A DNA stretch of 64,000 bases from the NCBI RefSeq assembly GCF_018474015.1, contig NZ_JAHCSG010000001.1, positions 682,001 to 746,000 of the forward strand. Direction: 5' to 3'. Made by a program: the position numbers and the translations under genes. Positions 1 to 21,608 of the stretch are shown here, piece after piece. Below the pieces are notes generated by a model, which had not been told where the DNA came from, ran no database searches, and saw only the letters and a list, made by a program, of their open reading frames with translations. The DNA comes from Williamsia sp. CHRR-6. Lineage in GTDB: Bacteria; Actinomycetota; Actinomycetes; Mycobacteriales; Mycobacteriaceae. Position 1 is the first letter of the stretch. Each line of letters opens with the position of its first letter.

Positions 1-3000
1 CCCAGTCGACCCGCCACCTTGGTGGCCGACAGCGAGTTGCCACCGAGGTCGAAGAAGCTGTCGTCGACGCCCACCCGCTCGGTGCCCAGCACCTCGGCGA
101 AGATTCGCGCCACCAACTGCTGAGCTGCGGTCTGCGGGGCCCGGTAAGCGCGTTCGAGCGCTGCGAACTCCGGTTCGGGCAGGGCGCGGCGATCCAGTTT
201 GCCGATGGGGGTCAGCGGGATCGAGTCGAGCACCACCACCGCCGCGGGCACCATGTGCGCAGGCAGCCGGGCGGCCACGAACTCCAGCAGCGCGGCCACG
301 TCCAGGCCGGTCGCGTCGCGTTGCGCCTCGTCGGGCAGGGTGACGTAGGCGGCCAGCGCGGTATGACCGGTCGGGTCGGGCACCCCGACGGTGACCGCAT
401 AGTTGACGAGTCCGGAGTCGACCAGCGCACGGTCGATCTCGCCGAGCTCCACCCGGAAGCCGCGCACCTTCACCTGAAAGTCACTGCGCCCCAGATATTC
501 CAGCGAGTTGGGCGCCACACTGCGATCCAGGCTGACCCGAACCAGGTCACCGGTCCGGTACATCCGGGACCCGGGTGCACCGAACGGGTCGGCGACGAAA
601 CGTTCAGCGGACAGATCGGGGCGGTTGTGGTATCCGCGCGCCAGACCCGGCCCCGACAGGTACAGGTCACCGGGCACCCCGCGCGGCACCAGACGCAACC
701 GGGAGTCCAACACGCGCAACGTCACTGCGCGCAACGGCGAACCGATGGTGATGCGGTCGCCGGCGTTGATCCGCTCGGTGATGGTGTCGATCACGGTCGC
801 CTCGGTGGGGCCGTAGGCGTTGCTGAGCCGTCCGCTCCACCGCTGGGCCAACTCCGGTGGGCACACGTCGCCACCGACGATCACCGTGGTGACGCAGTCG
901 AGGCCCTCGGGGTCCACGGTGAGCAACGCCGTCGGGGTCATCACCACCGTCGACACCTGCTCGGCGCGGATCAGCTCCGCCAGCTCGTCGCCACCGAAGA
1001 CGTCATGGGGCGCGACCACCACCGTTGCCCCGGCTCCGAATCCGGCCAACAGCTCACCGACAGAGGCGTCGAAACTCGGCGACGCGACATGCAGCACCCG
1101 GGCCTGAGGACAGATGCCGTAGTGCTCGTCGACGTCGGCGGCGAGGTTGGCCAAGCCGGCGTGGGTGACCACCACCGCCTTGGGCGTGCCGGTCGAGCCC
1201 GAGGTGTAGATGTAGTAGGCCGCATCGGCGATCCGCAGGGGCCGAAGGCGATCGGCGTCGGTGACCGGGGTGCCGGGATGGTCGTCGGCGTGATCGATCA
1301 GCTCGTCGATGTCGATCCAGTCGATGTCGTCAGGCAGCGCGACGCGATCGGCTGCGGTGGTCAAACCGACCACCGGAGCGGCGTCGGTGAGCATCGCGGT
1401 CACCCGGTCGGCCGGGTAGTCGGGGTTGATCGGCACGTACGCCGCACCGGTCTTGGCCACCACCCAGATGGCCACCACCGACTCCAGTGATCGGCGCATC
1501 CCCAGGGCCACAACCGAATCCGGGCCTACCCCGAGTTCGATGAGCTCGCGGGCCGCCTGCGAGGTCAGGGTGTCGAGCTGGTGGTAGGTCAGACTCTGTC
1601 CCCCACCGACCACCGCCTCGCCGGCCGGGTTGGCCGCCACGCCTGCGGTGAGCAGGTCGGGCAGCAGGGTGGGCGGCTCGTCGCCGGCACCGGTGAGGCT
1701 CAGCAGGTCGTCGCGTTCGGCGTCACTGATGATCTCCACTGCCGCCACCGGGGCGTCGACGTCGATGACGAACGACTCCAGCACGCGCAGATAGCGATCG
1801 GCGAACTCGGCCACGGTCGCCTCGTCGTATAGGTCGGTGGCGTAGGTGAGGGTGGCCGGGGCCGGCTCGTCGTCGGCGACGTTGTCGCTGATCGACAGCT
1901 GCAGATCGAACTTGGCCACCTCGATGGCCGCCTCGACCGGGGTGACCCGCAGATCCGGGAACTGCACCTCCGGAGATGCGTTGTTGTCGAACGACAACGC
2001 CACCTGGAACAGCGGATGGTGAGCGGTGGACCGCGCTACGTCGAGCACCTCCACCAGCCGCTCGAACGGCACGTCCGCGTGCGCCATGGCAGCCACGTCG
2101 GTCTCGCGCACCGCGGCGAGCAGCTCGGCGATCGTCTGGTCGGGATCGACGTCCACGCGCAGTACCAGCGTGTTGACGAACATGCCGACGAGGTGGTCGA
2201 GTGCCTCGTCACCACGCCCGGCCACCGGGGTGCCGATCGCGATGTCGGTGGACCCGCTCAACCGGCCCAGCAGCACCGACAGCCCGGCGTGCAGCACCAT
2301 GAACAAACTCACGTCGTGGGCCTGTGCCAGCTCGATCAGCCTGTGCCGCAGATCCGCATCGATCTCGAAGGCCAACGCCGCGCCGCGCAGCGACTGCTCG
2401 GCCGGGCGCGGCCGATCGGTCGGCAGATCGAGGAACTCGGGCAGTCCCCGCAACTGGCGCGCCCAGAAGTCGATTTGGTCGTAAGCGATCGACTGCGGAT
2501 CGTCCTCGTCGCCGAGCAGCGCACGCTGCCAGATGGCGAAGTCGGCGTACTGCACGCTCAACGGCGCCTGCTGCGGCGGATGACCTTCGCGCCGAGCCTG
2601 ATACGCGATGAAGACGTCGGCGAACAGCGGGGCCAGCGAGGCGCCGTCGGCGGCGATGTGGTGCAGCACGACGATCAGGACGTGGGCCCCAGGGGCGACG
2701 GTCAGCAACGTGATCCGGGCCGGCAGGTCGACGGTGACGTCGAAACCTGTTGCCGCCTCGGCGCGTATCACCTCGACGACATCGGCTGCGGCCACTGTCC
2801 GTTCGCGGTACATGACGTGTGCGGCGGTCTCGGGATCGGTGATCACCTGCACCGGCGTGCCGTCGACGTCGGGGTAGATGGTGCGCAGCGATTCGTGGCG
2901 GGCCACCACGTCGACGACCGCGGCGCGCAGGGCGGCGGTGTCGAGGTCGCCGTCGAGCCGGATGGGCAGCGGCAGGTTGTAGGCCGGTGAGGTGGTGTCG

Positions 3001-21000: not shown

Positions 21001-21608
21001 CCCGCCCACGGACCGGGCTCGGTGCCTGCCAACAGTGCGGAGTAGACCTCGGCCGCCCGGGTGAGCAACGTGAACGCCGCGAATCCGTCGAGCACGATGT
21101 GGTGGGCGCGGAAATACCAGAGGTGGTGATCGGGCCCGATGGTGAGCAAACTGCTCACGGTGAGTCGATCGGTGAGCACATCGATGGGGCGGCCATAGTC
21201 TTCGTGCATCCACCGCAGAGCCGCGGCGCGCGGATCGGCGTCGCCGGTGAAGTCGATGGCTTCGATCGTGTCCTCGACGCCGGTCACGACCTGCTGCATG
21301 GGCACGTCGCCGGTGTCGATCAGGCGCAGGAACCCCGACCCGATCTCCGCCGCAGCGATGTTGCACGCCTGTGTCAGGGTGGCGAGATCGATGGGGCTGG
21401 TCAGCTCGATGTACTCGGCGATGTTGATCGGGACCGACCCAAGCGCCTGTTGCGCGAACCAGATGCCGCGCTGCGCGGTCGACAACTCGAACGCGTCACC
21501 CGGCACTGCTGCTGGTGGCGGCACTGCTGCGGATGCAGGTGAGCGACCGGCAACCAAGTCCTCTTGCTCCAATCCCGAACGTTCGCTCGCCAATCCCCCG
21601 GGGACCAT
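1..21608 (-). CDS. Giant non-ribosomal peptide synthetase, six modules, 3' end beyond window
   Basis: One open frame of 7,202 residues enters from ATG at 21608 and leaves the window at base 1. The frame was checked at all six carrier-protein motifs and stays the same throughout. Domain order is C-A-T-E, C-A-T, C-A-T, C-A-T, C-A-T, C-A-T(cut). Carrier serines are at residues 1033, 2591, 3795, 4924, 6130 and 7192. The protein assembles a peptide of at least six residues as thioesters on phosphopantetheine arms; only residue 1 is epimerised in the visible part. The start was chosen because the next upstream in-frame stop is at 21654-21656 and this is the only ATG between; no convincing Shine-Dalgarno precedes it, so TTG starts a little downstream remain possible. 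More modules or a thioesterase may lie beyond the edge. The MbtH-like gene upstream fits actinobacterial NRPS practice. Gene identity is certain; the product is not known. Confidence 0.97.
3110..6665 (-). other. NRPS module 5: C-A(Ser)-T, with an extra A-domain fragment in the linker
   Basis: The C domain (~4981-5435; start [25 protein letters not shown]) is of the L-to-L type. A truncated A-domain start follows at ~5457-5527, then the full A5 (~5555-6082). Pocket residues D-V-W-H-F-S-L-V-D again give the EntF-type serine code, so the chain contains Ser-X-Ser at positions 3 to 5. Near nt 3490-3570, just before the C-terminal core motif of A5, there is a Ser/Pro/Gly-rich insert absent from the other A domains. 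T5 has IGGTS with Ser6130. Confidence 0.87.
5030..5240 (-). other. Truncated A-domain N-terminal copy in the linker before A5
   Basis: Residues ~5457-5527 read like the opening of an adenylation domain ([16 protein letters not shown], then DVTYGAL, then [20 protein letters not shown]) but stop after about 65-70 residues. A short helix-like stretch ([15 protein letters not shown]) follows, and then the genuine A5 opens again with [18 protein letters not shown]. None of the adenylate-forming core motifs is in this copy. It is in frame and kept, so it is part of the protein. Confidence 0.8.
6735..10035 (-). other. NRPS module 4: C-A-T, C domain with a repetitive insert
   Basis: The C domain (~3858-4305; start [25 protein letters not shown]) is of the L-to-L type. 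A low-complexity insert rich in Asp, Ser, Thr and Val occupies ~3984-4029, shortly before the HHxxxDG motif, and is encoded by tandem repeats (listed separately). A4 is ~4374-4877; pocket residues read D-A-F-A-V-G-A-V-A, not assignable by eye. T4 has LGGNS with Ser4924. No epimerase, methyltransferase or other tailoring domain is inserted. Confidence 0.85.
9552..9632. repeat. Tandem repeats inside the module-4 C domain
   Basis: Two perfect 15-bp units lie head to tail (9552-9566 and 9567-9581), followed by degenerate copies and two longer related units ending in actgtgct, to about 9632. On the coding strand they give the in-frame run [14 protein letters not shown] and similar text. Multiples of three keep the synthetase frame open, as expected of slippage-prone coding repeats. 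Confidence 0.85.
10120..13655 (-). other. NRPS module 3: C-A(Ser)-T, with an extra A-domain fragment in the linker
   Basis: The C domain (~2652-3056; start [23 protein letters not shown]) is of the ordinary L-to-L type. A degenerate copy of the start of an A domain lies between it and A3 (listed separately). A3 (~3249-3745) has pocket residues D-V-W-H-F-S-L-V-D, identical to the serine signature of EntF, so serine is predicted with good confidence. T3 has RGGNS in place of the usual LGGxS around Ser3795; the modified serine itself is present. This module closely parallels module 5 and probably arose with it by duplication. Confidence 0.87.
11985..12185 (-). other. Truncated A-domain N-terminal copy in the linker before A3
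   Basis: Residues ~3142-3208 resemble an A-domain start ([40 protein letters not shown]) and end before any catalytic motif. A stretch resembling the end of a C-A linker ([13 protein letters not shown]) follows, then the true A3 start near residue 3249. It is the counterpart of the copy before A5; the linkers of modules 1, 2, 4 and 6 lack it. Confidence 0.78.
13720..16870 (-). other. NRPS module 2: C(D-to-L)-A-T
   Basis: The C domain (~1580-2016) starts [16 protein letters not shown] and has HHVLLDGWS near residue 1722. This is the sequence type that follows an E domain, so it should join a D-configured donor to an L-acceptor. A2 is ~2044-2545, with core motifs such as [11 protein letters not shown] and YRTGD. 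Pocket residues read D-A-L-G-A-G-C-C-F, which I cannot match to a known code; aspartate 235 is present, so an alpha-amino acid is expected. T2 carries LGGNS (Ser2591). No epimerase follows. Confidence 0.85.
16955..21608 (-). other. NRPS module 1: C(EntF-like)-A-T-E
   Basis: Residues ~40-470 form the C domain with active-site HHIVLDG near residue 167. It resembles the EntF C domain (start [14 protein letters not shown], later [11 protein letters not shown]), a type that takes an acyl or aryl group from a separate carrier. A1 spans ~487-985. Pocket residues read by eye (GrsA positions 235, 236, 239, 278, 299, 301, 322, 330, 331) are D-V-W-S-L-A-L-V-H. The V-H ending recalls threonine codes but I do not assign a substrate. 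T1 has LGGDS (Ser1033), the DS form usual before an epimerase. The E domain (~1078-1551) has [10 protein letters not shown] near 1223 and FNYLGR near 1466, so residue 1 should be the D-form. No carrier for a starter group is visible in the window. Confidence 0.88.

What the first reader, a model, noticed from the sequence alone, without database searches (positions are those of the whole stretch)
1..21608. Uncharacterised peptide predicted as starter-D-X1-X2-Ser-X4-Ser-X6...
One epimerase in module 1, a D-to-L type C domain in module 2, and serine codes in modules 3 and 5 define a Ser-X-Ser core. The other four pockets (D-V-W-S-L-A-L-V-H, D-A-L-G-A-G-C-C-F, D-A-F-A-V-G-A-V-A, D-A-G-V-I-G-A-V-I) match no code I can recall, so the product may contain unusual residues. 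The gene exceeds 21.6 kb and is still open.
Basis: partly seen in the sequence, partly recalled or inferred. Interest (0 to 1): 0.6.

Follow-up and report, generated by a model that had tools for sequence, protein, structure and literature searches.

The report
Lipopeptide megasynthase with miniature adenylation domains
The window holds two thirds of a giant nine-module enzyme that probably builds an unknown lipid-tailed peptide in Williamsia bacteria; the enzyme and its operon carry small, previously unnamed fragments of adenylation domains that in related enzymes sit on both ends of split subunits and so look like a new kind of connector.

Summary
Window 21608->1 (-) is an NRPS: starter C, E after module 1, D-to-L-type C2, serine codes in M3 and M5. 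Two of the four 'unknown' codes were misread by one residue (M2 is DALFAGCCF, M4 is DAFFVGAVA). The frame runs to 11,944 codons, nine modules, with a terminal E and no TE. The genome is a Williamsia. Orthologues of 11.2-11.8k residues occur in several Mycobacteriaceae genera; mbtH and a DrrABC exporter lie beside it. In this genome modules 7-9 are non-orthologous, replaced from inside T6, at the window's edge. Predicted product, unknown: acyl-D-X1-X2-Ser-X4-Ser-X6-D-Thr-(D)X8-D-Gln.

Unexpected: a ~95-residue 'mini-A' (only the N-terminal edge of an A domain) sits in the C-A linker of M3 and M5 in 11 of 11 orthologues, and as two stand-alone genes flanking mbtH. Homologues lie at both raw ends of NRPS subunits split between C and A, in 16 of 16 junctions read. 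The M5 copy is under purifying selection about as strong as its neighbours. No Pfam or NCBIfam family fits and I found no paper on it. I infer a new NRPS docking/linker domain; pairing and function are untested, and release of the peptide is unexplained.

The parts
1..21608 (-). NRPS gene, 5' two thirds (modules 1-6); goes on outside the window to G000:C1:667819 (modules 7-9)
20184..21491 (-). C1, starter (lipoinitiation) condensation domain
   Evidence: best PDB matches 7c1k family, CDA C1, ObiF1, EntF (1e-59 to 1e-42) against 1e-16 or worse for elongation C domains; all 80 relatives fetched lie at the N-terminus of their frame, 77 within 120 codons
18663..20162 (-). A1, code DVWSLALVH
16914..18290 (-). 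E1 epimerisation domain
15531..16850 (-). C2, D-to-L type
13989..15485 (-). A2, code DALFAGCCF
12324..13649 (-). C3, L-to-L type
11892..12215 (-). mini-A insert in the C3-A3 linker
   Evidence: 72 bits, 82 bits
10380..11885 (-). A3, serine code DVWHFSLVD
8520..10043 (-). C4
6990..8504 (-). A4, code DAFFVGAVA
5292..6665 (-). C5
4947..5261 (-). mini-A insert in the C5-A5 linker
   Evidence: 111 bits, 120 bits; dN/dS
3372..4964 (-). A5, serine code DVWHFSLVD
1701..3053 (-). C6
186..1685 (-). A6, code DAGVIGAVI (DTGVVGAVI in most orthologues)
1..176 (-). T6 and point of module exchange: orthology with the relatives ends near residue 7200-7225, at the window edge
21934..22386 (-). smA, stand-alone mini-A protein gene
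22642..22863 (-). MbtH-like protein (73 aa)
   Evidence: 84-89% identical copy at the same place in six relatives; identification by motif and recall, no family model matched
22943..23377 (-). smB, stand-alone mini-A protein gene
23672..24883 (+). DrrA-type ABC exporter ATPase
   Evidence: TIGR01188 above cut-off
24880..25695 (+). DrrB-type permease
25692..27254 (+). DrrC-type permease with long disordered-looking N-terminal part
27405..28265 (+). family-2-type glycosyltransferase
   Evidence: relatives of 52-53% identity at the same place in G001 and G007

Best explanation
The gene encodes a nine-module lipopeptide NRPS. A starter C domain N-acylates the first residue, E1 makes it D, modules 2-6 add X2, L-Ser, X4, L-Ser and X6, and modules 7-9 add D-Thr, X8 (its E domain has a changed active site) and D-Gln/Glu. 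The MbtH-like protein helps the A domains and the divergent DrrABC operon probably exports the product (inferred). The backbone is conserved across several Mycobacteriaceae genera, but modules 7-9 of this genome were replaced as a block. The M3 and M5 C-A linkers hold a mini-A, a short derivative of the A-domain N-terminus, and two free mini-A proteins flank mbtH. Because homologous mini-As sit on both raw ends wherever related NRPS subunits are split between C and A, the most likely role of the fold is to hold a C domain and its A domain together: a docking pair when the chain is cut, a linker domain when it is not. Shown: anatomy, codes, orthology, the exchange, position and conservation of mini-As. 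Inferred: substrates, export, docking.
For: Domains. Orthologues and synteny. Exchange of M7-9: identity with the relatives falls from 55-80% collinear to 45-50% non-collinear at residue ~7200, and A8 has no close relative in 151 family genomes while A6 has one in every congener. Mini-A: exactly M3 and M5 in 11 of 11 orthologues, 63-120 bits against at most 48.6 for ordinary A N-termini; 16 of 16 C|A-split junctions carry one at each end; AlphaFold pLDDT 90 and 85 with A-domain N-termini as the top Foldseek matches; dN/dS of the M5 copy 0.03-0.30, at or below that of its C5 and A5.
Against: No product, expression or interaction data. No release domain was found. The Foldseek E-values are all above 0.05; the case rests on the top matches agreeing and on 40-50 residues superposing at 1-2 A. 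Mini-A binding was not modelled. Only one mini-A, not two, is present in M3 and M5. The M3 copy evolves faster (dN/dS 0.22-0.65). Most junctions were chosen from a list of mini-A hits, so 16 of 16 is not a random sample of C|A splits.
Confidence: 0.65

Rival explanations
1. Mini-As are recombination scars: when an A domain was exchanged, the first ~80 residues of the old one were left behind, with no function.
For: They look like A-domain N-termini and lie exactly where an A domain begins. The A3 code varies strongly between orthologues (Ser, Thr, aberrant), so exchange has happened next to one of them. In the tree M5 falls near ordinary A N-termini.
Against: Kept in 11 of 11 orthologues across genera, low dN/dS, conserved as free genes beside mbtH, and paired at both ends of split subunits.
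Confidence: 0.2
2. The NRPS is only the first subunit: the terminal E hands the chain to another NRPS, as GrsA and TycA do.
For: The last domain is an intact E domain (HHLVVDA, RTVGWFT motifs) and no TE motif is present. Some congeners have further NRPS genes nearby.
Against: The two other multimodular NRPSs inspected in this genome (4580 and 6187 codons) have their own N-terminal C domain and a C-terminal TE. No NRPS follows in the 22 kb downstream here, and most orthologues have none directly behind.
Confidence: 0.2
3. smA and smB are not docking relics but small MbtH-like helper proteins that stabilise the synthetase in trans.
For: They directly flank mbtH in Williamsia, and smA-like proteins adjoin mbtH in another genus (L181, L184, L186).
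Against: smB nests among the C-terminal mini-As of split subunits (96/88 support), and orthologous NRPSs in Rhodococcus and Tomitella do without them.
Confidence: 0.3
4. An already known lipopeptide cluster (for example the Rhodococcus NRPS-2 family, or another described product) accounts for this gene.
For: [quoted passage not shown]).
Against: No product is assigned there; humimycin NRPSs are described with seven modules' worth of residues, not nine (general knowledge).
Confidence: 0.15

Closest known systems
C-starter lipopeptide NRPSs of Rhodococcus (NRPS-2 and other families; Ceniceros et al. 2017, PMC5550956)
   Same: N-terminal starter C, serine/threonine-rich predictions, no known product, broad conservation in mycolate-containing genera
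   Different: Whether the NRPS-2 family is this one could not be tested; modules 7-9 of this genome are unique in the genomes searched
NRPS docking domains: COM, PAX, beta-hairpin (review PMC9113145)
   Same: Small elements at the raw ends of NRPS subunits
   Different: Mini-A is ~95 residues, derives from the A-domain N-terminus, is present on both partners, and marks a C|A cut rather than the T|C or E|C cuts described for those classes
Humimycin synthetases (IupU)
   Same: Starter C, rhodococcal lipopeptide, mbtH nearby
   Different: Different module number and codes; product here unknown
MbtH-like protein operons
   Same: mbtH upstream of the NRPS
   Different: Flanked on both sides by mini-A genes

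Membership tests
Modular NRPS (C-A-T) | Repeated condensation, AMP-binding and PP-binding domains in one frame | tested here: met
Lipopeptide (C-starter) NRPS | N-terminal C domain of the acyl-starter clade | tested here: met
Lipopeptide (C-starter) NRPS | Acylated product | not testable with these tools
   no chemistry
NRPS with TE or reductive release | C-terminal TE or R domain | tested here: not met
   terminal domain is E; no TE motif
COM/PAX/beta-hairpin docking domains | Helix-hand, short helix or beta-hairpin element at T|C or E|C cuts | tested here: not met
   mini-A models are helix, beta-hairpin, three helices and match A-domain N-termini; cuts are C|A
Complete adenylation domain | A3-A10 core motifs | tested here: not met
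   mini-As stop after the N-terminal edge; no Pfam match for smA, weak NCBIfam matches to the first ~55 residues of DltA-type enzymes
Rhodococcus NRPS-2 gene cluster family | Same BiG-SCAPE family | not tested
   the figure and sequences are not held

The most novel reading that the evidence does not exclude
Mini-A is a new class of NRPS docking domain: a homologous pair derived from the A-domain N-terminus that rejoins a module cut between C and A, kept in cis as a linker domain in uncut modules, with free-standing copies beside mbtH acting in trans.
Probability: 0.5. Interest if true: 0.75.

Novelty: new variant of a known kind. Interest (0 to 1): 0.6.

Why it matters
A paired connector at the C|A boundary would be a natural precedent for cutting and rejoining NRPSs inside a module, a place where engineers already splice, and would add a class to the few NRPS docking domains known. 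It is directly testable with small soluble proteins. Separately, a nine-module synthetase conserved over several genera of mycolate bacteria, with one genome in which the last three modules were swapped as a block, is a clean natural case of module exchange, and its product is unknown.

Tried and rejected
A genome-contig scan with the G000 N-terminus alone found nothing; the alignment A2 worked. Plasmid collection: only short DrrA similarity. First automatic code extraction by regular expression was unreliable and was replaced by a full alignment. Considered that smA/smB are spurious frames: rejected by conservation and dN/dS. Considered that the terminal E passes the chain to another NRPS of this genome: the two candidates inspected have their own start and TE. 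Considered Lipase_2 next to the NRPS end as a trans-acting release enzyme: conserved in 10 of the 11 neighbourhoods, but it is convergent, not in the operon, and looks secreted, so not adopted. Literature searches for a truncated or partial A domain as docking domain gave nothing relevant.

Full report
What was claimed and what is there. The frame is real: ATG at 21608 and open to the window edge. In the genome the window is C1:682001-746000 and the frame goes on to C1:667819, 11,944 codons between stops. Thirteen C-type domains were found by PF00668, giving C1-A1-T1-E1 | C2 | C3 | C4 | C5 | C6 | C7..E7 | C8..E8 | C9..E9. No TE motif is present. E9 has intact HHLVVDA and RTVGWFT motifs; E8 has NHLVVDA in place of HHLVVDA, so its activity is doubtful.

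Domain types. C1's best solved relatives are starter-type C domains: 7c1k family at 3e-59, CDA C1 at 2e-53, ObiF1 at 6e-53, EntF at 2e-42, with elongation C domains at 1e-16 or weaker (that the 7c1k entries are starter domains is my own knowledge). All 80 relatives fetched with the C1 alignment lie at the N-terminus of their frame, 77 of them within 120 codons. C2 matches C domains that follow an E domain and C3 those that do not. E1 is an epimerase.

Codes. By established code tables (own knowledge) M3 and M5 are Ser, M7 Thr, M9 Gln/Glu; the rest stay unassigned.

Organism and orthologues. Orthologous frames of about 11.15-11.8k codons occur in several genera of the family. The order PNPOx, (GT2), DrrC, DrrB, DrrA, divergent to smB, mbtH, smA, NRPS, then a convergent Lipase_2, is conserved in Williamsia in the broad sense; in Tomitella and in G024 the mbtH and DrrABC genes lie on the other side.

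Module exchange. Sliding comparison shows G000 residues 1 to ~7200 collinear with the relatives at 55-80% in Williamsia, apart from variable stretches such as module 3; from ~7200 on the best matches are 45-50% and scattered. The fall lies in and just after T6, about window position 1-70. In the relatives C8 is preceded by a module without E; here E7 is present and C8 is of the D-accepting type by its HHILLDG motif. A8 has no match at E<=1e-140 in 150 other family genomes, whereas A6 has one at 1e-200 or so in every congener. The donor is unknown.

Mini-A. The linkers C3-A3 and C5-A5 are longer than the others by about 110-150 residues. Each holds a segment that repeats the A-domain N-terminus (helix, TY..L hairpin, helix, [20 protein letters not shown]) and then stops. 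A profile finds it in exactly M3 and M5 of all 11 orthologues (63-120 bits; ordinary A N-termini at most 48.6 bits; the profile was built partly from these sequences). The two small genes beside mbtH, smB and smA, are of the same family. They have no Pfam match (smA) and only weak NCBIfam matches to the first ~55 residues of adenylate-forming enzymes. AlphaFold models are good (pLDDT 90 and 85) and the top Foldseek matches are nearly all A-domain N-termini, though with E-values of 0.06 and above. dN/dS is 0.03-0.30 for the M5 copy, 0.05-0.37 for smA, 0.20-0.26 for smB and 0.22-0.65 for the M3 copy.

Junctions. In W. maris's sister G001 one NRPS ends in C-mini-A and the next begins with mini-A-A. 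Sixteen such loci were read: in all sixteen the upstream subunit ends ...T-C-mini-A and the downstream one begins mini-A-A-T-C. Most were picked because two mini-A hits lay close together; five (G086, G077, G069, G118, G016) were picked on a single hit and proved paired as well. In the tree the C-terminal and N-terminal copies form separate groups, in two sets, and smB nests with C-terminal copies (96/88); columns are few and deep forks weak. In samples of 200 genomes of the order and 296 of the phylum, full-length matches above background were seen only in this family, but the tool scored only 17-25 candidates per genome, so absence elsewhere is not shown.

Interpretation. The NRPS part is a new member of a known kind. 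The mini-A is best read as a docking or linker domain that keeps C and A of one module together. The review of docking domains that I could read describes COM, PAX and beta-hairpin types for NRPSs and none like this in the passages searched. Searches of the paper library found no description; subscription papers are not held.

Limits. No chemistry, no interaction modelling, no MIBiG comparison; release of the peptide is unexplained; the MbtH assignment rests on sequence motif and position.

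Noticed in passing
window 22943-23377 and 21934-22386: Two small conserved genes resembling only the N-terminal edge of A domains flank mbtH; now part of the main finding.
   Followed up: yes
L235-L250: NRPS subunits split between C and A with a mini-A on each raw end, in many genera of the family.
   Followed up: partly
L086 (NZ_JNYV01000004.1): A record titled Kitasatospora arboriphila NRRL B-24581 carries a locus almost identical to Williamsia muralis (smA and smB rows identical to another W. muralis record): probably a mislabelled or contaminated genome.
   Followed up: no
G000:C1 modules 3 in orthologues: The M3 adenylation code varies among orthologues: Ser (G000, G003), Thr (G001, G007), and aberrant codes such as DMKNTGTAT or DQKNLGNVT elsewhere, which may mark an inactive or unusual domain.
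   Followed up: no
window 25692-26500: The DrrC-type permease has a long N-terminal extension with GPGARTPSG-like repeats.
   Followed up: no
window 32488-36474 (-): nSTAND1 NTPase fused to WD40 repeats (1328 aa), a type seen in signalling or defence proteins.
   Followed up: no
L041:4629-5717 (+): Lipase_2 protein convergent to the NRPS end, conserved in 10 of 11 neighbourhoods; possible processing enzyme.
   Followed up: partly
G017:C2:895999-896274: A further stand-alone mini-A-like gene downstream of the W. muralis NRPS (48.8 bits).
   Followed up: no
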